33,447 nucleotides of DNA, taken from assembly GCA_017635675.1 (NCBI GenBank), contig JAGBLA010000052.1, positions 1-33,447 of the forward strand, read 5' to 3'. A program made the translations under genes and the position numbers. Origin of the DNA: Ruminiclostridium sp. (GTDB taxonomy: Bacteria > Bacillota > Clostridia > Oscillospirales > Ruminococcaceae). The notes beneath the pieces were generated by a model. The model was given only the letters and a program-made list of their open reading frames with translations. It did not search any database and had not been told where the DNA came from. Of the stretch, positions 245-26,497 are shown piece after piece (the first letter of the stretch is position 1; every line of letters starts with the position of its first letter).

Positions 245-3200
245 TCAGACAGCTTTTGTGTTTTTCGCCGCGCTTATTGCCGCGTTTATTGAGGCTCCGA
301 GCGCTCTGCATCTTAACAGCAGGTCTTCCATTCCCGAATTTACGGTATCTGCGTCACCCTCGCTGCAGGCGTTCTCAAGCTCTCTCGCGCTCCTGCGTAT
401 CCACTCCGCGCCGACTGTTCTTGACGCGCCTTTAAGGCTGTGTAGCTTTATACCGAGATTTGTTATATCTCCGCCAAGCCAGTAATCCGCAGTATCGTCA
501 ATGTAACCGTTCATCATTTCCGCGTATGCTTTCAGATTTTCAAGATACTGCGCCTCCGAGCCCGCATTCTTTATACCCGATACCGTATCAAGCTCGGTAA
601 GGCTGAATATCCTGTCGGGAACAGCTGCTTTCGGCGGAGCTTTCGGTTTTAATGCCACAGACGCTTTTATCTTCTCGGGCGGCAGATACTCAACTATCAT
701 TTCTTCAAGCTTTGCCGATTCGATAGGCTTAGTAAGATAATCGTCAAAACCCGCATCAAGATACTTCTCCCTCGCCCCTGAGATTGCATTCGCGGTAAGA
801 CATATCACAGGCGTATCCCGGTTCGGGTCATTCTCTGCGGCACGCATCTCATGAAGTGTTTCGATACCGTCCTTCTTCGGCATCATGTGGTCGAGGAATA
901 TTATGTCGTACTTGTTTCGCATAGCAAGCGCGATACCGTCGTCGCCGCTCTCGGCTGTGTCTATCTTCACCTGCGTGCTCTTGAGAAGGCTCGTAAATAC
1001 GAGAAGGTTCATCACCGTGTCATCGACTACAAGTATATGCGCGTCGGGCGCGGTGAACTTCTCATGGTACTTTTTCCGTGAAGCTATGGAACTTCTGTGG
1101 GCTTCCTCGTAATTGCCGAGCTCGTCCCATTTCCTCACCTGCTGCTTAAGTCTGAAACCGAATGTTGAGCCCTCTCCGTAAACGCTCTCAACATCGAGTT
1201 TTGAGCCCATCATTGTAAGAAGGCTCTGGGTAATGGACATTCCGAGTCCCGTTCCCTCTATCGTGCGGTTTCGCTCCTCCTCAATACGCTCGAACTTTGA
1301 GAAGAGCTTCGCCATGTCCTCCGCCTTTATGCCTATTCCGGTATCCTTTATCGCAACACATATCATCACGCTGTCCGGTTCGCCGTCTATACGCTCGAAA
1401 CCCGCCCTGAATGTTACGCTTCCTGTCTCGGTGTACTTCACCGCGTTTGTGAGGATATTGGTAATGACCTGCTTTATGCGCACCTCATCACCGTGCAGCA
1501 GATGCGGCATTGACGGGTCAAACTCCGTGACAAGCATGAGCCCCTTGTTGTCGAGCCTTGTCTGTATCATGTTCACAAGGTCGCTCAGCACTGTGGCAAG
1601 GTCGTAATCAACGGGTATTATCTCCATCTTGCCCGCTTCTATCTTCGAGAAATCAAGTATGTCGTTTATCAGCCCGAGAAGCGTCGTTCCCGCTGTTCTT
1701 ATGCTCTCGGAGTAGGTGATGACCGCGGGGTCGTCACACTCGCGCAGCACCATTTCGTTCATGCCGAGCACCGCGTTGATAGGCGTTCGTATTTCATGCG
1801 ACATATTCGACAGGAACGCGGATTTTGCTTCGTTCGCCGCCACAGCTCTCTCGGACAGGTCTATGAGCTTTTCGCGGTCTTTCTTCTCCTTGTCGATGTT
1901 TTCAAGCATCCACAGCACATGGGTTATCTTTCCGTTCTCGTCACGTTCGGAGACCACATACCGCCCTCTTACCCAGATATTGCCATAGCTCAGATACTCA
2001 CAGGTAAGTGTGTTTTTGTCAGCCATTTTCTCGTCGATATCAGATAGGTCGCAGAAATCTATCGCCGCCTGTTTTGTGGGACTTTCGGGAAGTCCACGCA
2101 TTATCCCGAAGAAGATGTCCTGCATATTGTGGTCACAGGCATCCACCGCCTTTGCGATAGCGGGATTTGCGTTCTTTATTGCAACTACCGAATTATCCCG
2201 TATATCAAGGTCGCACAGTGAGATGTAAATATCCGCTGCCGAGGAAAGCTGTGATGTGAGCTTTTCCGCCTTTTGGGAAAGGATATCTCTTGTGCGCTTT
2301 TCTTCGTCTATATCTTCGAGCATCCACAGCACGTGCGACAGTCTGCCCTCGGGAGTGCGCACAGACTCCACAAATCTTCCTCTCACCCACTTATGCCCGT
2401 GGCTGAGGTATTCGAGAGTAATGCTCCCCTTGTCCGCAATGCGCTCCTCAAGCGTTGAAAGATCCACAAAATCTATCGCCGCCTGTTTGGTGGGGCTTTC
2501 CGGCATACTGTCCATGATGCGGCGGAACGTTCCCTGAACATCGTTCACATCGGGTGCGAACTGCATTATGAACCGAGGATTATAGTCCTTTATCTGAATG
2601 ACCTTCATATTAATAAGGTCGATGTCACTCAATGACATATAAATATCCGCGGCAGACGAGAGCTGATCATTGAGGCGCTTGGCGAGTATCTCGCGGCGTC
2701 CCGAGCGTATGATTATCAGCACGATCGAAGCGAGTATCGCTATCGAAACTATAACGCTTATCATGAACATTATGCGTATGGGCATATACTCGTCCGCGGT
2801 CGCGACGACCGATATGCTGTACCAGCTTCCGTGGACGGGAACTATGTAAACCGTATATCCGTGACCGCCGTATGAAAGGCTAAAGCACTGTTCACTGTTA
2901 TCGCTTATCATCGAAATGATCGCCGCTCCTATGGAGTCCTCGCCTTCTCCGATGTACGACTTGCCGAGTTCGCCGGTATCGGTATGCGCAACTACCGAAA
3001 AACTGCTGTCAAGCACCATTGCGGTAATATTCGCATTTCCTGTTGAATGGTCTTCGATGACCTGCTGTATGCGTTCAAGCGAAACATCGAACATTACTAT
3101 GCTCTCACCGTCAGACATAGTCTTGGCTATTGTCATAAGCGTGTTTCCCGTATGAATGTCACTGCACGGGTCAACAAGCACAAAATTCCCCTTGTCAGCC

Positions 3201-3649
3201 ATGGCTTCGCGATACCACGGACGTTCTGCCGGAACATAGTCGGGAATACGTATTCTCTTCTCGCTCCCGTCGAATATCCTGCCCCCTATGAGAGAATAGA
3301 GCTTTGTGGTCTCCGAGTTTATCATGTTCTTCAGCGACGCGTCCTGCTGTATAATAAATTCAAGAATTTCTTCGTCAGATGCACCGCTCACTATCATATT
3401 ATCAAGAGTGAACTCAACGATCGCCAGTGAATTTGAGCAGTCGTAAAGAAACGTATCCACAGTCTTTGCCGAGCGTTCCGCAGATATCTGTCCTGTATTA
3501 TTCATGTTTTCGCTCACGGAATTCAGAAGAAGGATATTGTATATAACGATTACCCCGGCAACAAATACGATTATGACAGCGGAAAGCAAAAGCCTTCCCT
3601 TGCTCAGTTTTTTCAGTATATCTTTAAGTGGTATCTTGTTCTTATCCAT
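245..3649 (-). CDS. Hybrid sensor histidine kinase (dCache, 2x PAS-like, HisKA, HATPase, REC, HPt)
   Basis: This 1134-residue membrane protein should sense an extracellular signal and pass phosphate along an internal His-Asp-His relay. Residues 19-43 and about 293-316 are membrane segments that flank an extracytoplasmic dCache-like domain. Residues about 325-455 and 463-592 are two similar PAS-like modules, each with SSAADIY, MPESPTKQAAIDF-like and HVLWMLE blocks. HisKA follows with H618 in SHEIRTP, then an HATPase_c domain with N-box NILTNAVKY, DTGIGI and GTGLGM. A receiver domain carries D920 (FLDHMMP) and K974, and the C-terminal HPt carries H1070 (LHSLKGASR). The start is supported by GGGAG 11 nt upstream and a promoter at 3697-3725. 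No partner regulator is adjacent. The HPt resembles that of the HD-GYP protein at 22482. Confidence 0.95.
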   Translation of the reverse strand: MDKNKIPLKDILKKLSKGRLLLSAVIIVFVAGVIVIYNILLLNSVSENMNNTGQISAERSAKTVDTFLYDCSNSLAIVEFTLDNMIVSGASDEEILEFIIQQDASLKNMINSETTKLYSLIGGRIFDGSEKRIRIPDYVPAERPWYREAMADKGNFVLVDPCSDIHTGNTLMTIAKTMSDGESIVMFDVSLERIQQVIEDHSTGNANITAMVLDSSFSVVAHTDTGELGKSYIGEGEDSIGAAIISMISDNSEQCFSLSYGGHGYTVYIVPVHGSWYSISVVATADEYMPIRIMFMISVIVSIAILASIVLIIIRSGRREILAKRLNDQLSSAADIYMSLSDIDLINMKVIQIKDYNPRFIMQFAPDVNDVQGTFRRIMDSMPESPTKQAAIDFVDLSTLEERIADKGSITLEYLSHGHKWVRGRFVESVRTPEGRLSHVLWMLEDIDEEKRTRDILSQKAEKLTSQLSSAADIYISLCDLDIRDNSVVAIKNANPAIAKAVDACDHNMQDIFFGIMRGLPESPTKQAAIDFCDLSDIDEKMADKNTLTCEYLSYGNIWVRGRYVVSERDENGKITHVLWMLENIDKEKKDREKLIDLSERAVAANEAKSAFLSNMSHEIRTPINAVLGMNEMVLRECDDPAVITYSESIRTAGTTLLGLINDILDFSKIEAGKMEIIPVDYDLATVLSDLVNMIQTRLDNKGLMLVTEFDPSMPHLLHGDEVRIKQVITNILTNAVKYTETGSVTFRAGFERIDGEPDSVMICVAIKDTGIGIKAEDMAKLFSKFERIEEERNRTIEGTGLGMSITQSLLTMMGSKLDVESVYGEGSTFGFRLKQQVRKWDELGNYEEAHRSSIASRKKYHEKFTAPDAHILVVDDTVMNLLVFTSLLKSTQVKIDTAESGDDGIALAMRNKYDIIFLDHMMPKKDGIETLHEMRAAENDPNRDTPVICLTANAISGAREKYLDAGFDDYLTKPIESAKLEEMIVEYLPPEKIKASVALKPKAPPKAAVPDRIFSLTELDTVSGIKNAGSEAQYLENLKAYAEMMNGYIDDTADYWLGGDITNLGIKLHSLKGASRTVGAEWIRRSARELENACSEGDADTVNSGMEDLLLRCRALGASINAAISAAKNTKAV

Positions 3650-3696
3650 ACATTAAATGCTCCCGAAAGCAGAAATGATAATAATTTCTTATTATG

Positions 3697-3725
3697 ATTA
3701 TATCATATCTTACATGATTAGTAAA
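3697..3725 (-). promoter_or_regulatory. Sigma-A promoter of the hybrid histidine kinase gene
   Basis: On the minus strand, TTTACT (3720-3725) and a perfect TATAAT (3697-3702) are separated by 17 bp, in an AT-rich gap about 45 nt before the start codon. Confidence 0.75.
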
Positions 3726-3753
3726 GAAAAAAAACAAAAAAGATATTGTCTGA

Positions 3754-3795
3754 CAAAAAAATCAAGGAGAACTTCTTCTCCAGAAAAAGTTCTCC
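3754..3795 (-). terminator. Rho-independent terminator after the transketolase genes
   Basis: Read on the minus strand, a perfect 9-bp stem GGAGAACTT/AAGTTCTCC (3787-3795 with 3766-3774, 12-nt loop) is followed four bases later by a run of seven T (3755-3761). It lies 17 nt past the transketolase C-terminal subunit and is the only strong terminator I see for the long gene cluster upstream. Confidence 0.88.
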
Positions 3796-3812
3796 CGATG
3801 AATTATATTCTA

Positions 3813-4748
3813 TTATTTGCCGAGCGCAGCCTTGACTGTATCCGTGATATTCTCCGCGGAAAGTCCGAACTCCTTCAGAAGCGCGACTGCGGGGCCCGAA
3901 TGTCCGAACACATCCTGTACGCCTATCTTGATCACCGGTACAGGGCAGGTCTCGGTGACAACGGACGCAACAGCTGAACCCAGACCGCCGATAACGCTGT
4001 GCTCCTCAACGGTCACTATCTTACCCGTCTCGCGTGCCGCCTTTTCGATTATCTCGCGGTCGATAGGCTTGATAGTGTGTATATTTATGATACGCGCGTC
4101 GATGCCCTGCTCCATAAGAGCGTTGCCGGCTTCTATCGCTTCCGCCACCATAAGTCCTGTAGCGATTATCGTTATGTCCTTTCCGTCCTTTATGGTCACA
4201 CCCTTTCCGACCTCAAACTTATAGGTCGCGGGATCGTTGAACACAGGCACCGCAAGACGTCCGAAGCGCATGTATGTAGGACCTTTATAATCTGCCATTG
4301 CAAGCACTGCAGCAGTCGCCTCAACATGATCCGCGGGATTTATAACAGTCATGTTCGGTATCACGGACATGAGCGCAATATCCTCACAGCACTGATGAGA
4401 TGCGCCGTCCTCACCTACCGAGATGCCCGCGTGGGTAGCGCCGATCTTGACGTTGAGATTCGGATAACCGATGCTGTTTCTCACTATCTCGAATGCACGT
4501 CCGGCAGCAAACATTGCAAATGAGCTTGCGAACACAAGCTTTCCTGTAGTCGCGATACCAGCCGCAACGCCCATCATATTAGCCTCTGCGATACCGCAGT
4601 CAAAATGCTTTTCGGGGTAAGCTTTCTTAAAGATGCCTGTCTTTGTTGCAGCCGCGAGATCCGCGTCAAGCACGACAAGATCGGGACGTATCTCAGCGAG
4701 CTTGCAGAGAGCTTCGCCGTAGCTTTCACGAGTTGCTTTTTTATCCAT
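3813..4748 (-). CDS. Transketolase, C-terminal (pyrimidine-binding) subunit
   Basis: This 311-residue protein is the second half of a split transketolase. It moves two-carbon units between sugar phosphates in the non-oxidative pentose phosphate pathway, using thiamine diphosphate, in the cytoplasm. The catalytic glutamate region reads CGIAEANMMGVAAGIA near residues 51-66. The pyrimidine-binding domain occupies roughly residues 5-170 and the transketolase C-terminal domain the rest (IHTIKPID near 220). SD GGAG lies 9 nt before the ATG. The gene follows the N-terminal subunit gene after 17 nt, so the two are surely co-transcribed and presumably assemble into the active enzyme. Split transketolases are common in Clostridia and archaea. 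A DXS/TktC-like subunit of another enzyme is less likely given the adjacent partner. Confidence 0.95.
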   Translation of the reverse strand: MDKKATRESYGEALCKLAEIRPDLVVLDADLAAATKTGIFKKAYPEKHFDCGIAEANMMGVAAGIATTGKLVFASSFAMFAAGRAFEIVRNSIGYPNLNVKIGATHAGISVGEDGASHQCCEDIALMSVIPNMTVINPADHVEATAAVLAMADYKGPTYMRFGRLAVPVFNDPATYKFEVGKGVTIKDGKDITIIATGLMVAEAIEAGNALMEQGIDARIINIHTIKPIDREIIEKAARETGKIVTVEEHSVIGGLGSAVASVVTETCPVPVIKIGVQDVFGHSGPAVALLKEFGLSAENITDTVKAALGK

Positions 4749-22481: not shown

Positions 22482-24233
22482 ATGCAGCAAACCACACCGG
22501 ACAATATCCGCCGCAGACAGACGACAGTCCTGGTCATAGATGATGATAAGCTGATACGTGATACGGCGCAGAGGATACTTGCGCCTTTTTTTCGTGTGAT
22601 ATGCCGCGCCGATGATACCGACGGTATCGCTGCTGCGGAAGAAGAGCTGCCTGATCTGATACTGCTGGATATAAACCTGGAGGGAAAATCGGGATTCGAT
22701 GTGCTGAAAGCTCTGAAAAGCTCGGTGACGACCCGCGATATACCCGTGATGTTCATAACCGGCGAGACCAGCGAGGATATGGAGGTCAGAGCCTTCCGCT
22801 GCGGAGCGTCAGACTATGTCCGCAAGCCCTTTGTGCCGGAGGTGCTTATCCAGCGCTCAAAACGCGTTATCGACCTGTATCACTATCAATCGGGCTTGAA
22901 AAGCGAGGTCACACGGCAGACCGCAAGAGCCGACAGGCTATCCCTCGAAATGATGATAGCCCTGTCAAAGACGGTCGATGCGAAAGACCATTATACCAAC
23001 GGTCATTCCGGAAGAGTCGCGGACTATTCGGCGGAGATAGCCCGCAGAATGGGCAAAAGCTTTGCCGAACAGGAAAAGATATTCGAAATGGGGCTCATGC
23101 ACGATATAGGAAAGATCGGCGTGAGCGAGGAAATACTGAACAAGACCTCCCGTCTTACGGACGAGGAATTCGCGCAGATAAAGAAACACACCGTCATAGG
23201 CTATGACATTCTGAGCTCTATCGAGGAAATGCCCGATCTGTCGGTGGGTGCGCGCTCACACCATGAGAAGTTCAACGGCACGGGCTACCCCGACGGGCTC
23301 GCGGGGAGCGATATCCCCGAAGCCGCGCGGATAATATGTCTCGCGGACTGTTATGACGCTATGACATCGCGGCGCACATACTCCACTCCCCGCTCACAGG
23401 AGGCGGTAAGAGCCGAGATAGAGCGCTGCAGCGGCACACAGTTTGACCCGGATATCGCAAAGATCCTGCTCGGTATGATAGACGACGACCCGGAATACAA
23501 GATGAACCAGGAAGGCGGCATCATGGTCTGGAAAAACAGGGATATGCTGTGGAACATCAGACCGGACACGGACAGCGCAGCCGACGATACCGCCGAGCAG
23601 GAAAACAGCGAAATTCCCACAGATACCGGGATCATGCTCCCGGAATGGCTCAGCGAGATCGGGGAGATAGATGTGAGCAGCGGCCTGCTGCACTGCGGTT
23701 CTGATGATACATACCTCTCTGCGCTCACAACTTATGCCGGGTCTGTGATATCCGCCGCAGACGACGCGGAAGCTATGCTGAAAAACGGAGATATCCGGGG
23801 CGCGACAGTCAGGATACATTCTCTCAAAAGCACATCGCGGGTCATAGGTGCCATGAAGCTGGGCGCGCTCGCGGAGGAGCTTGAAGCGGCGGGAAACGCG
23901 AATGACACGGAAAAGCTGAACTCCCGCTGCGGCGAGCTGTTCTCGCGGTGCAGAGCTCTCGGCAAGCAGCTTGCCCCGCTGCTCGTCAGCGACAGTCTTC
24001 CGCTTATAACCGGGGACGGGCTCAATGAAGCATACACGCTGATACGCGAGTTTCTCTCGGTGGAGGATTATGAAAGCGCGATGCAGATAGTCGGCGGTCT
24101 GGAGGGATTCAGTTTCCCCGACAGCGACAAAAAACGCTGTGAGGCACTTATACGGGCGGCAAAGGAATTTGACTACGACGCCATGAGCAGAATCATGAAC
24201 AGTAATGACAGCGCTGCTGCCCATATCGGATAA
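22482..24233 (+). CDS. Response regulator with HD-GYP phosphodiesterase and C-terminal HPt domain
   Basis: This 583-residue cytoplasmic protein joins three modules. A receiver (about 15-130) has acidic residues D20-D22, phospho-acceptor D63 (LLDINLEG) and K115 (RKPF). An HD-GYP domain (about 150-345) has H207-D208 in MHDIGKIG, HHEKFNGTGYP (260-270), and LADCYDAMTSRRTY, so it should hydrolyse cyclic di-GMP or a related dinucleotide. A C-terminal HPt (about 395-505) has H446 in RIHSLKSTSR. The final 75 residues look helical and are unassigned. The ATG has AAAGGCGGGA upstream and a consensus promoter. No kinase is adjacent, so phosphate may come from the hybrid kinase at 245-3649, whose HPt is similar (inference). 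Confidence 0.93.
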   Translation: MQQTTPDNIRRRQTTVLVIDDDKLIRDTAQRILAPFFRVICRADDTDGIAAAEEELPDLILLDINLEGKSGFDVLKALKSSVTTRDIPVMFITGETSEDMEVRAFRCGASDYVRKPFVPEVLIQRSKRVIDLYHYQSGLKSEVTRQTARADRLSLEMMIALSKTVDAKDHYTNGHSGRVADYSAEIARRMGKSFAEQEKIFEMGLMHDIGKIGVSEEILNKTSRLTDEEFAQIKKHTVIGYDILSSIEEMPDLSVGARSHHEKFNGTGYPDGLAGSDIPEAARIICLADCYDAMTSRRTYSTPRSQEAVRAEIERCSGTQFDPDIAKILLGMIDDDPEYKMNQEGGIMVWKNRDMLWNIRPDTDSAADDTAEQENSEIPTDTGIMLPEWLSEIGEIDVSSGLLHCGSDDTYLSALTTYAGSVISAADDAEAMLKNGDIRGATVRIHSLKSTSRVIGAMKLGALAEELEAAGNANDTEKLNSRCGELFSRCRALGKQLAPLLVSDSLPLITGDGLNEAYTLIREFLSVEDYESAMQIVGGLEGFSFPDSDKKRCEALIRAAKEFDYDAMSRIMNSNDSAAAHIG

Positions 24234-24270: not shown

Positions 24271-24287
24271 ATGCTTGCAATAAGCAT
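24271..24287. promoter_or_regulatory. Inverted repeat over the -35 box of the sensor-phosphatase gene
   Basis: ATGCTT and AAGCAT form a perfect 6-bp inverted repeat with a 5-nt spacer, covering the -35 hexamer at 24275-24280. This is a plausible repressor operator; the binding protein is unknown. Confidence 0.4.
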
Positions 24288-24303
24288 CGAAACATGATAT
24301 AAT
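24275..24303 (+). promoter_or_regulatory. Sigma-A promoter of the sensor-phosphatase gene
   Basis: TTGCAA (24275-24280) and a perfect TATAAT (24298-24303) are 17 bp apart, 31 nt before the ATG at 24335. Confidence 0.85.
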
Positions 24304-24334
24304 ATGATAAGTATGCAGTTTGGCGGTGAACATT

Positions 24335-26446
24335 ATGATAAACGGAAAAAAAGTGATTGCGGTATGTACATCAAGAATATCGGACAACCAGCTTCACAAC
24401 TTTCTCGAACAGCTCAACGAGTATCTCAGACCTCTTGACTGCTGCGTAATGATATTTGCTCTGAATACCGATCTGTACTGGATAGAGGAGCGAAAATCCC
24501 CGGAAAGCTATGTTTTTGACATAATCCCTTACGACAGGATAGAATGTCTTGTTTTAATGGACGAAAAGATCAAAAGCGACAAAGTTTCAAGAAGACTTAT
24601 CGAAAGAGCGTCGGAATATTCCTGCCCTGTGATAGTCATCGACGGAAAATATGAAGGGACTGTCAGCATCTCATTTGACTACGAAAAGGGATTTGAGCAG
24701 GTGGTGCGCCATGTTATCGAGGTGCATCATGTCAGAAAGCCTCACTTTATCGCAGGAGCCAGAAACAACAAATTCTCCGACGCGAGGATAGAAATATTCA
24801 GAAATGTCATCACGGAAAACGGCATAGCTTTCGATGACAGCATGGTAAGCTACGGTGAATTCTGGTCGCTTCCCGCCCGTGAAGCCGCTCAGAAACTTAT
24901 CGACAGCGGTAATATCCCCGAGGCTGTCATCTGTGCCAATGACGTTATGGCTATCAATGTCTGTGATGTGTTCATACAGGCAGGAATAAAGGTGCCGGAA
25001 CAGGTCATCGTCACCGGGTTCGACGGTATCGAGGAGGCTCTTATGTGCTCACCTCAGCTTTCTACCGCCGGCTGCGACAGCACAGACCTCGCAGAAGCCG
25101 CGGCTCAATGTATCGCCGCTATACTCGACGGTCAGACGCCCCACGACAGTTTCGTTATCCCGAGGATAGCACCCAACGCCTCCTGCGGCTGTGAATATGT
25201 TCCGACCGATTACAGCATAAAGGTGAAAGGTATCAACAACAAGTTTTACCGCTATCAGGACGATATCCGTATGCTTTACGACGTATCTACAAGCATTCAG
25301 ATGTCCGAATCCCCGGAGCAGGCTTCCGCCTCACTTAAACATTATCTTATGCACGATATGTGCTGCATCATGGACACGAAATGTTTCAACACCGGCAGGA
25401 ACTTCTTCAATACCGAGGAAATGGGTGAGAAACACTGTGTTCTGTACGACGCGTACCACGAAGATACGCCTTGTATAAAGCTCGCTCCCGGAGAGCTTGT
25501 ACCTGACATCGAACGGCGGCTTAACACCGGGTACCCCATTATCTTCAATGCCCTTGATTTCATGTCGAAACCGTTCGGGTATATCTGCTACTCTTACAGC
25601 GGCTATGACATCAACGAATATTCAAGGACATCGAGCATCACCAATACCGTGAGCATGGGATTCGGCGGATTTGTAACACTGAATTACCAGCGTTTCCTCA
25701 GAGAAAAGATAACCAAAGAGCTCAAAGTCGCCGCTGAAATGCAGAAGAACATGATGCCTTCGGACTTTGAGTTCCATGACAGATTTGAGATGAACGCGTC
25801 CATGATACCCGCAAAGAATGTCGGCGGAGATTTCTACGATTTCTTCAACATCGACCGTGACCACCTTGCCCTCGTCATGGCAGACGTATCGGGCAAGGGC
25901 GTTCCCGCGGCGCTTTTCATGGCAGTATCAAAGAATATACTTCATGACCGGGCACTGCTTTCCGGAACTCCCGCCGAGATACTGCGCGATGTGAACCGAC
26001 AGATCTGCGAAGACAACAAAATGGGACTGTTCATCACCGTGTGGCTTGGCATACTTGATCTCAATTCCGGTATCATAACCTATGCGAACGCAGGACATGA
26101 ATACCCCGCCATAAATGACGGGAGCGGGAAATTCTCGCTCGTGACAGGTGACAATATGCCTCCTGTGGGTACTATGGACGATCTGACATACGAGGATCAT
26201 ACTATAGATATAAGCGGCGGCGGTTATCTGTTCATTTACACCGACGGAGTCACAGATGTCAAAAACGCTGAGGGCGAGCATTTCGGCATCGACAGAATGT
26301 TAAAACTGCTCGACGGCACGGACGGCAAGTCCCCGAAGGATATCATAATCGGTATGAACCGCGGTATCGACAGCTTTGCCCAAGATACCGAGCGGTTTGA
26401 TGATACTACCATGATGTGCCTGTGGTACAAGGGCGCGGGTAATTGA
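24335..26446 (+). CDS. LacI-type ligand-binding domain fused to a SpoIIE-type serine phosphatase
   Basis: This 703-residue protein starts directly with a periplasmic-binding-protein-like fold of the LacI/GalR sensor type (about 5-285): VIAVCTSRI, AVICANDVMAINVCDVF, and VIVTGFDGIEEALMCSPQLSTA. There is no helix-turn-helix, signal peptide or membrane segment, so the ligand should be cytoplasmic. NASCGCEYV ends this domain. A region of about 300-455 may be GAF-like, followed by a helical linker. The C-terminal PP2C/SpoIIE phosphatase (about 460-700) has VGGDFYDFF, MADVSGKGVPAALF, NAGHEYPAI, YTDGVTD and FDDTTMM with the metal-binding aspartates. A sugar or similar ligand may thus switch a serine phosphatase acting on an anti-sigma antagonist-like target. 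The ATG is chosen because GGCGGTG lies 6 nt upstream. The target is unknown. Confidence 0.9.
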   Translation: MINGKKVIAVCTSRISDNQLHNFLEQLNEYLRPLDCCVMIFALNTDLYWIEERKSPESYVFDIIPYDRIECLVLMDEKIKSDKVSRRLIERASEYSCPVIVIDGKYEGTVSISFDYEKGFEQVVRHVIEVHHVRKPHFIAGARNNKFSDARIEIFRNVITENGIAFDDSMVSYGEFWSLPAREAAQKLIDSGNIPEAVICANDVMAINVCDVFIQAGIKVPEQVIVTGFDGIEEALMCSPQLSTAGCDSTDLAEAAAQCIAAILDGQTPHDSFVIPRIAPNASCGCEYVPTDYSIKVKGINNKFYRYQDDIRMLYDVSTSIQMSESPEQASASLKHYLMHDMCCIMDTKCFNTGRNFFNTEEMGEKHCVLYDAYHEDTPCIKLAPGELVPDIERRLNTGYPIIFNALDFMSKPFGYICYSYSGYDINEYSRTSSITNTVSMGFGGFVTLNYQRFLREKITKELKVAAEMQKNMMPSDFEFHDRFEMNASMIPAKNVGGDFYDFFNIDRDHLALVMADVSGKGVPAALFMAVSKNILHDRALLSGTPAEILRDVNRQICEDNKMGLFITVWLGILDLNSGIITYANAGHEYPAINDGSGKFSLVTGDNMPPVGTMDDLTYEDHTIDISGGGYLFIYTDGVTDVKNAEGEHFGIDRMLKLLDGTDGKSPKDIIIGMNRGIDSFAQDTERFDDTTMMCLWYKGAGN

Positions 26447-26461
26447 AAAAACAATAACGGT

Positions 26462-26497
26462 AAAAAAGACGCAGGACATTGAGCCTGCGTCTTATTC
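26462..26497. terminator. Bidirectional terminator between sensor-phosphatase and galE genes
   Basis: AAGACGCAGG (26466-26475) and CCTGCGTCTT (26484-26493) form a perfect 10-bp stem with an 8-nt loop. On the minus strand it ends in a run of six T after galE; on the plus strand a T-rich ATTCTTATT follows the stem. Confidence 0.93.

What the first reader, a model, noticed from the sequence alone, without database searches (positions are those of the whole stretch)
24335..26446. Cytoplasmic LacI-type sensor wired to a SpoIIE-type phosphatase
The protein starts directly with a LacI/GalR-like ligand-binding fold, has no DNA-binding head, signal peptide or membrane segment, and ends in a complete PP2C/SpoIIE phosphatase with all visible metal-binding aspartates. 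LacI-like domains normally drive a helix-turn-helix, and SpoIIE-type phosphatases are normally driven by PAS, GAF, REC or membrane sensors. This suggests a route from an intracellular sugar-like ligand to partner-switching control of a sigma factor or other target, possibly for carbon sensing beside galE and lacZ.
Basis: partly seen in the sequence, partly recalled or inferred. Interest (0 to 1): 0.72.

Follow-up and report, generated by a model that had tools for sequence, protein, structure and literature searches.

The report
LacI-type sensor fused to protein phosphatase
A clostridial bacterium has a one-piece protein in which a sugar-repressor-like sensor, usually attached to an enzyme that makes a second messenger, has been re-attached to a protein phosphatase, a natural example of signalling parts being swapped.

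Summary
Window 24335-26446 (+) is one intact 703-aa ORF: LacI/GalR-type ligand-binding domain (1-287), an undescribed ~170-aa middle domain, then a complete SpoIIE/PP2C phosphatase. It has no DNA-binding head and no likely membrane segment. Six of 71 genomes of the genus, this one included, carry the full-length fusion (58-69% identical pairwise), so a sequencing join is excluded. Trees place the fusion sensors as one clade among GGDEF-linked sensors, and their phosphatases as one clade beside PAS-SpoIIE paralogues. Identity passes from one parent to the other at residues 456-461, in the linker. This points to a single effector swap. Canonical ligand-pocket residues and four metal-site aspartates are kept in all six. 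Most likely it is a soluble phosphatase gated by a small ligand through the linker, acting in trans on a STAS-type phosphoprotein. Ligand, direction of control and target are inferred. No STAS/anti-sigma gene is linked here, and the galE/lacZ neighbourhood is not shared by the other five.

The parts
24335..26446 (+). whole gene, 703 aa (ATG start), LacI-like sensor + middle domain + SpoIIE/PP2C phosphatase
   Evidence: full-length copies in 6 of 71 genus genomes, own included
24275..24303 (+). promoter-like site TTGCAA-17-TATAAT with TG before the second hexamer; suggests its own transcription unit
   Evidence: consensus scan only (8 sites in the region, 3.5 expected)
24322..24329 (+). SD-like GGCGGTGA, 5 bases before the ATG
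   Evidence: sequence
24335..25195 (+). residues 1-287: LacI/GalR-type ligand-binding (periplasmic-binding-protein-like) domain; R151, F176, N202, D230 are the canonical pocket positions
   Evidence: R151, N202, D230 in 70 of 70 aligned rows, F176 F or Y in 70 of 70; kept in the six fusions
25181..25192 (+). residues 283-286, S-C-G-C motif closing the LacI-like domain; C284 and C286 (and C200) invariant
   Evidence: 70 of 70 aligned rows for C200, C284, C286
25196..25708 (+). residues 288-458: undescribed middle domain shared with the GGDEF-linked relatives; GAF-like by position and pattern only
25700..25717 (+). residues 456-461: join between sensor and phosphatase parentage inside the linker
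   Evidence: per-residue identities; segments shown
25718..26443 (+). residues 462-703: linker end and SpoIIE/PP2C phosphatase with D499, D517, D637, D690 (Pfam core 25856-26422)
26466..26493 (+). terminator-like stem (10 pairs) just after the gene
   Evidence: consensus scan only (2 found, 2.3 expected)

Best explanation
It is a soluble one-component signalling phosphatase made by a single effector swap. A LacI-type sensor plus middle domain, which in most relatives is followed by a GGDEF domain, was joined inside its helical linker to the phosphatase half of a PAS-SpoIIE paralogue. Working model: the LacI-like domain, probably as a dimer, binds a cytoplasmic small molecule (sugar-like by analogy). 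Lobe closure is passed through the middle domain to the linker helix that leads into the PP2C domain, and this changes phosphatase activity, as the coiled-coil linker does in RsbU. The active phosphatase removes phosphate from a Ser/Thr-phosphorylated STAS-type protein encoded elsewhere and so changes its partner. Shown: domain content, conserved pocket and catalytic residues, origin by swap, join position. Inferred: dimerisation, helical linker, linker gating, STAS target. Unknown: ligand and whether it switches the enzyme on or off.
For: Domains. Six full-length copies, pairwise 58-69% identical, with the LacI and phosphatase parts better kept (65-69 and 66-69% to the window) than the middle domain (47-58%). 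Pocket and metal residues invariant in the six. Swap: sensors of the six form one clade (100/100) among GGDEF-linked sensors in a tree of the best 75 of 110 sensor rows (midpoint root); their phosphatases form one clade (99/98) in a tree of 37 rows, beside three SpoIIE proteins (joint support 100/99), two of which were scanned and have a PAS_4 domain (L161, L171; L173 not scanned). Identity to the two parents crosses over at residues 456-461, with no indel in residues 437-500 of the six. Linker mechanism: precedent for RsbU and proposed exchange between PPM, GGDEF and kinase outputs (PMC12143880, passages seen). Candidate targets in this genome: STAS proteins at C156, C214, C165 and a STAS-kinase fusion at C93, all with the EYISSAGLRVL motif.
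Against: No linked STAS, anti-sigma or sigma gene names the target. No structure model could be made, so dimer and linker geometry are untested. The fold of the middle domain is unknown and it may itself be the sensor. In 2 of 6 fusion genomes (this one and G089) an HD-GYP gene lies next to the fusion, which could point to c-di-GMP rather than sigma control. STAS-kinase proteins were not found in one of the six fusion genomes (G088).
Confidence: 0.6

Rival explanations
1. Same architecture, but the LacI-like half only dimerises or holds the protein, and the middle domain (288-458) senses the signal.
For: The middle domain sits directly before the linker, is detected in 70 of 80 sensor-type genes of the set by a simple search and is the most diverged part among the fusions, as a specificity domain might be.
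Against: The pocket positions of the LacI-like half are conserved in 70 of 70 aligned rows, which a purely structural domain would not need.
Confidence: 0.15
2. The phosphatase does not act on a STAS protein but on another phosphoprotein, or in c-di-GMP-related signalling, the ancestral output of the sensor.
For: HD-GYP genes lie next to the fusion in 2 of 6 genomes although each of the six has only 8-19 HD_5 matches; no STAS gene is linked in this window.
Against: The two HD-GYP neighbours differ in architecture and side; beside the non-fusion sensor genes an HD-GYP gene is adjacent in only two loci. Two SpoIIE-type phosphatases of this genome lie beside STAS and RsbW-like genes at C156.
Confidence: 0.2
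3. A decaying or non-functional fusion in one lineage.
For: Patchy: 6 of 71 genomes of the genus.
Against: Six diverged intact copies with catalytic and pocket residues kept.
Confidence: 0.03
4. Two genes joined by a sequencing or assembly error.
For: The assembly is in 223 contigs and has 7.03% estimated contamination; nothing else.
Against: The same fusion in five other assemblies, with a linker of identical length.
Confidence: 0.01

Closest known systems
LacI-like (Peripla_BP_3) + GGDEF proteins of Clostridia
   Same: Same LacI-like domain, SCGC motif, middle domain and linker start; sensors 28-50% identical to the window's (outputs). A review notes Periplas_BP domains, also found in LacI regulators, among sensory domains of c-di-GMP proteins (PMC8846402, passages).
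   Different: Output is GGDEF, not a phosphatase.
RsbU/RsbP/RsbZ-type PPM phosphatases
   Same: SpoIIE/PP2C catalytic domain behind an N-terminal sensor and linker.
   Different: Sensors named in the passages seen are RsbU-N, PAS, GAF, response receiver and HAMP (PMC12143880); 'LacI' and 'periplasmic binding' occur 0 times in its main text. No linked partner genes here.
SpoIIE paralogues of the same genus with a PAS domain (L161, 520 aa; L171, 533 aa)
   Same: Closest phosphatase domain (58-61% identical; sister group).
   Different: PAS_4 domain instead of LacI + middle domain.
LacI/GalR repressors (CcpA, AscG, PurR, LacI)
   Same: Ligand-binding domain.
   Different: No HTH; output is enzymatic.
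RsbQ/PAS sensing module with diverse outputs (PMC3183031: title and abstract start seen in the listing)
   Same: One sensing module coupled to a PPM phosphatase and, as cited in PMC12143880, to histidine kinases and GGDEF domains.
   Different: Different sensor.

Membership tests
SpoIIE/PP2C (PPM) phosphatases | PP2C-type domain over the curated cut-off | tested here: met
   PF07228 145.8 bits against a cut-off of 25
SpoIIE/PP2C (PPM) phosphatases | metal-binding aspartates in GGD, ADVSGKG, TDGVTD and FDDTT motifs | tested here: met
   all four in all six fusions; the role of the motifs is recalled
SpoIIE/PP2C (PPM) phosphatases | metal-dependent Ser/Thr phosphatase activity | not testable with these tools
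   needs an enzyme assay
LacI/GalR transcription factors | N-terminal HTH DNA-binding domain | tested here: not met
   no HTH family in the Pfam scan; the protein starts at the sensor domain
LacI/GalR-type ligand-binding domain | sequence match to the domain and conserved pocket positions | tested here: met
   R151, F176, N202, D230; correspondence to E. coli LacI R197, W220, N246, D274 is recalled
LacI/GalR-type ligand-binding domain | binds a sugar-like ligand | not testable with these tools
   needs a binding assay
RsbU-type partner-switching systems | linked STAS antagonist / RsbW-type kinase / sigma factor | tested here: not met
   none next to the gene in this window; in the flanks of the other five fusions only a STAS-kinase gene 3.8 kb away in G011, not in an operon with it
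RsbU-type partner-switching systems | potential partners in the genome | tested here: met
   6 STAS matches and 9 HATPase_c_2 matches, 5 of them over the cut-off
LacI-like GGDEF proteins | GGDEF output domain | tested here: not met
   output is SpoIIE
GAF domain (middle domain) | significant profile match to GAF | tested here: inconclusive
   no GAF match among 54 members; hhalign E 0.041, probability 1.3%, best segment on a GAF core strand; 6 shuffled controls E 0.15-0.76, PAS control E 0.44, while GAF against PAS itself gave E 0.00047

The most novel reading that the evidence does not exclude
A naturally occurring, single-event exchange of a whole output domain (GGDEF to PP2C phosphatase) on a conserved LacI-type cytoplasmic sensor, with the cut inside the linker helix. 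It turns an intracellular metabolite signal from second-messenger synthesis to protein dephosphorylation, and would be a LacI-type-gated PPM phosphatase, which I did not find described in the searches listed.
Probability: 0.6. Interest if true: 0.62.

Novelty: new variant of a known kind. Interest (0 to 1): 0.5.

Why it matters
A 2025 proposal (PMC12143880, passages seen) holds that phosphatases, diguanylate cyclases and kinases share a linker mechanism, so that sensors are exchangeable. Here relatives of both parents of a swap, the join and six descendants are in hand. The idea can be tested directly: does one ligand gate a GGDEF relative and the phosphatase with the same sign? It also adds a LacI-type sensor to the inputs of SpoIIE-type phosphatases.

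Tried and rejected
The middle domain as a known family: 15 families each matched 1 of 54 members only, best E 0.0066, taken as chance; PDB best E 0.21, taken as chance. A GAF profile built from 25 GAF domains of relatives (7 of them under Pfam's cut-off) was not significant. Conserved neighbours of the sensor genes: counted over 79 of 80 loci (L123 failed), three genes per side; in the clusters printed no gene family holds one fixed position in more than 3 loci. A GH3 enrichment near the sensors was considered: 4 of 79 loci share a large gene that looks like GH3 by eye, judged close to background without a test. HD-GYP linkage was considered: next to the fusion in 2 of 6 genomes, and adjacent in two non-fusion loci (L117, L127) as well; left open. 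STAS-kinase proteins as the dedicated partner: found in 5 of 6 fusion genomes and 11 of 65 others (Fisher P 0.0017), but relatedness and the larger signalling repertoires of those genomes confound this, and one fusion genome gave none. Heptad register of the linker was looked at by eye and gave nothing clear.

Rows left out: the 70-row alignment holds 69 of the 80 loci plus the window (11 truncated, near-duplicate or distant loci left out); the middle-domain alignment holds 54 of those 70; the sensor tree 75 of 110 rows; the phosphatase tree 37 rows after 15 of 52 duplicates were removed. In one search only 55 of 104 non-fusion sensor rows could be anchored, and residues 452 and 455 are identical there by construction. 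One search read several loci on the wrong strand; one search corrected this.

They scored at most 4 and 2 candidates per genome and rank single matches, so an independent, diverged LacI-SpoIIE fusion could be missed. Of 13 sensor ORFs taken for a further look (seven of them for their length of about 650-720 aa), ten had GGDEF by a simple search, one is GGDEF-EAL by Pfam (L141), one has HTH_18 (L134) and one (L144) was not followed. Paper searches for this architecture: four returned no paper; in the listings of the others (titles and abstract starts) I saw no LacI-SpoIIE fusion. Only PMC12143880 and PMC8846402 were opened, for passages. Subscription journals and domain-architecture databases were not searched.

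Full report
Observation. The ORF is real and is best read from ATG 24335 (703 aa), with an SD-like GGCGGTGA upstream and a promoter-like TTGCAA-17-TATAAT at 24275-24303 (consensus only). Pfam finds Peripla_BP_3 and SpoIIE over their cut-offs and no HTH. PDB sequences matched are LacI-family sensor domains and RssB-type PP2C. Hydropathy gives no convincing membrane segment, unlike two SpoIIE paralogues of the same genome. Full-length copies are found in 6 of 71 genomes of the genus, own genome included, so a joining error is excluded.

What the sensor is. Their outputs are: SpoIIE in 2, GGDEF in 75, and no visible output in 3 that run off the contig. The two SpoIIE loci lie on contigs of the same length as those of two of the six genomes (G011, G089) and are not counted as further cases. 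By record title all but one of the 80 are clostridial or Firmicutes genomes, many of them Ruminococcus or Lachnospiraceae; one is a Spirochaetaceae MAG (L114). Other outputs seen on related sensors: GGDEF-EAL (L141, L143) and HTH_18 (L134), HD-GYP (the second gene of L127) and GGDEF plus a GH3 glycosidase (L068, L096). The sensor is therefore a widely used input module. R151, N202, D230, C200, C284 and C286 are invariant in 70 of 70 aligned sensors (69 of the 80 loci plus the window), and F176 is F or Y in all 70. The match of R151, F176, N202 and D230 to the sugar-contacting positions of LacI-family proteins follows from the alignments and recalled residue roles.

The middle domain (288-458) is shared with the relatives. 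Scanned in 54 of the 70 rows, it matches no Pfam model in more than one member and no PDB sequence convincingly. A GAF-like nature is suggested by its place before the linker and by the best local profile match falling on a GAF core strand, but the score is not significant and is weaker than that of GAF against PAS in the same test.

How the fusion arose. In a tree of 37 SpoIIE domains the six fusions form one clade (99/98), and with three SpoIIE proteins of the same genus a larger one (100/99). Two of those three were scanned and have a PAS_4 domain (L161, L171); the third (L173) was not scanned but looks alike before its phosphatase. In a tree of the 75 best of 110 sensor domains the six form one clade (100/100) among GGDEF-linked sensors (67 of the other 69 rows have GGDEF by a simple search, 2 are truncated; midpoint root). 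Residue by residue, the fusions resemble the GGDEF-linked sensors up to about 455 and the PAS-SpoIIE proteins from about 461 (segments). The linker has the same length in all six. The simplest history is one exchange of output domain inside the linker.

How it may work. RsbU is controlled through a coiled-coil linker that dimerises and activates the phosphatase domains, and the authors propose that sensors are exchangeable between PPM, GGDEF and kinase outputs through such linkers (PMC12143880, passages only). The join found here lies in the corresponding segment. I infer that ligand binding in the LacI-like domain is transmitted in the same way. This was not tested: structure prediction was off.

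Target. Nothing next to the gene in this window names a target: upstream is a REC-HD-GYP protein with a weak Hpt match on the same strand, downstream a convergent galE, then lacZ. None of galE, lacZ, PGA_cap, CDF or miaB is found near the other five fusions in the stretches fetched (2.1-9.3 kb per side). A search with the HD-GYP neighbour finds another HD-GYP gene next to the fusion in G089 (L054/L167), and a match of its residues 389-572, which hold the Hpt domain, in a 1400-aa protein near the fusion in G088. The genome has 12 SpoIIE matches, one of them a short piece with two stops, 6 STAS and 9 HATPase_c_2 matches, 5 over the cut-off. SpoIIE, STAS and RsbW-like genes cluster at C156, and SpoIIE plus an RsbW-like gene at C165; C131 holds what look like spoIIAA, spoIIAB and a sigma factor (by reading). 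STAS proteins at C156, C214, C165 and C93 carry EYISSAGLRVL and are the candidate substrates. The C93 protein is a STAS-kinase fusion (STAS + APH); such proteins are found in 5 of 6 fusion genomes and 11 of 65 others, a suggestive but confounded association.

Verdict. New variant of a known kind: known domains, a rare combination with a clear single origin in what was searched, and a clean natural test of the exchangeable-linker idea. Ligand, sign and target remain open.

Noticed in passing
L068:6001-10308 and L096:6001-10305: One ORF of about 1435 aa joins the LacI-like sensor, a GGDEF domain and a GH3 glycoside hydrolase (N and C domains); a hint that some of these sensors handle glucoside-type sugars.
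   Followed up: partly
L127:291-2162 and 2306-4291: Tandem genes with related LacI-like sensors, one ending in GGDEF and the next in HD-GYP: possibly an opposed cyclase/phosphodiesterase pair.
   Followed up: partly
L163:1397-2587 (-), L053:977-2158, L164:2321-3784: STAS domain fused to an APH-type kinase, in L164 also to an RsbW-like HATPase (running to the locus end) directly behind a SpoIIE gene; found in 16 of 71 genus genomes, up to ten matches in one, some to the kinase half only.
   Followed up: partly
L165:1075-3201 (-): SpoIIE phosphatase fused to an RsbW-like HATPase in one protein.
   Followed up: no
L134:1422-3581: LacI-like domain at the N-terminus and an AraC-type HTH_18 at the C-terminus with about 360 aa between.
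   Followed up: no
window 22482-24233 (+): Response regulator with HD-GYP and a weak C-terminal Hpt match; another HD-GYP gene lies next to the fusion in G089 (L167:4375-5925).
   Followed up: partly
window residues 200, 284, 286 of the 24335 ORF: Three cysteines invariant in 70 of 70 aligned sensors (CAND and SCGC); possible redox or metal site in a cytoplasmic sensor.
   Followed up: no
L083:4173-5975 and similar genes in L055, L072, L086, L106: A gene of about 600 aa recurs near GGDEF-linked sensor genes in 5 of 79 loci, directly upstream on the same strand in 3 places; not identified.
   Followed up: no
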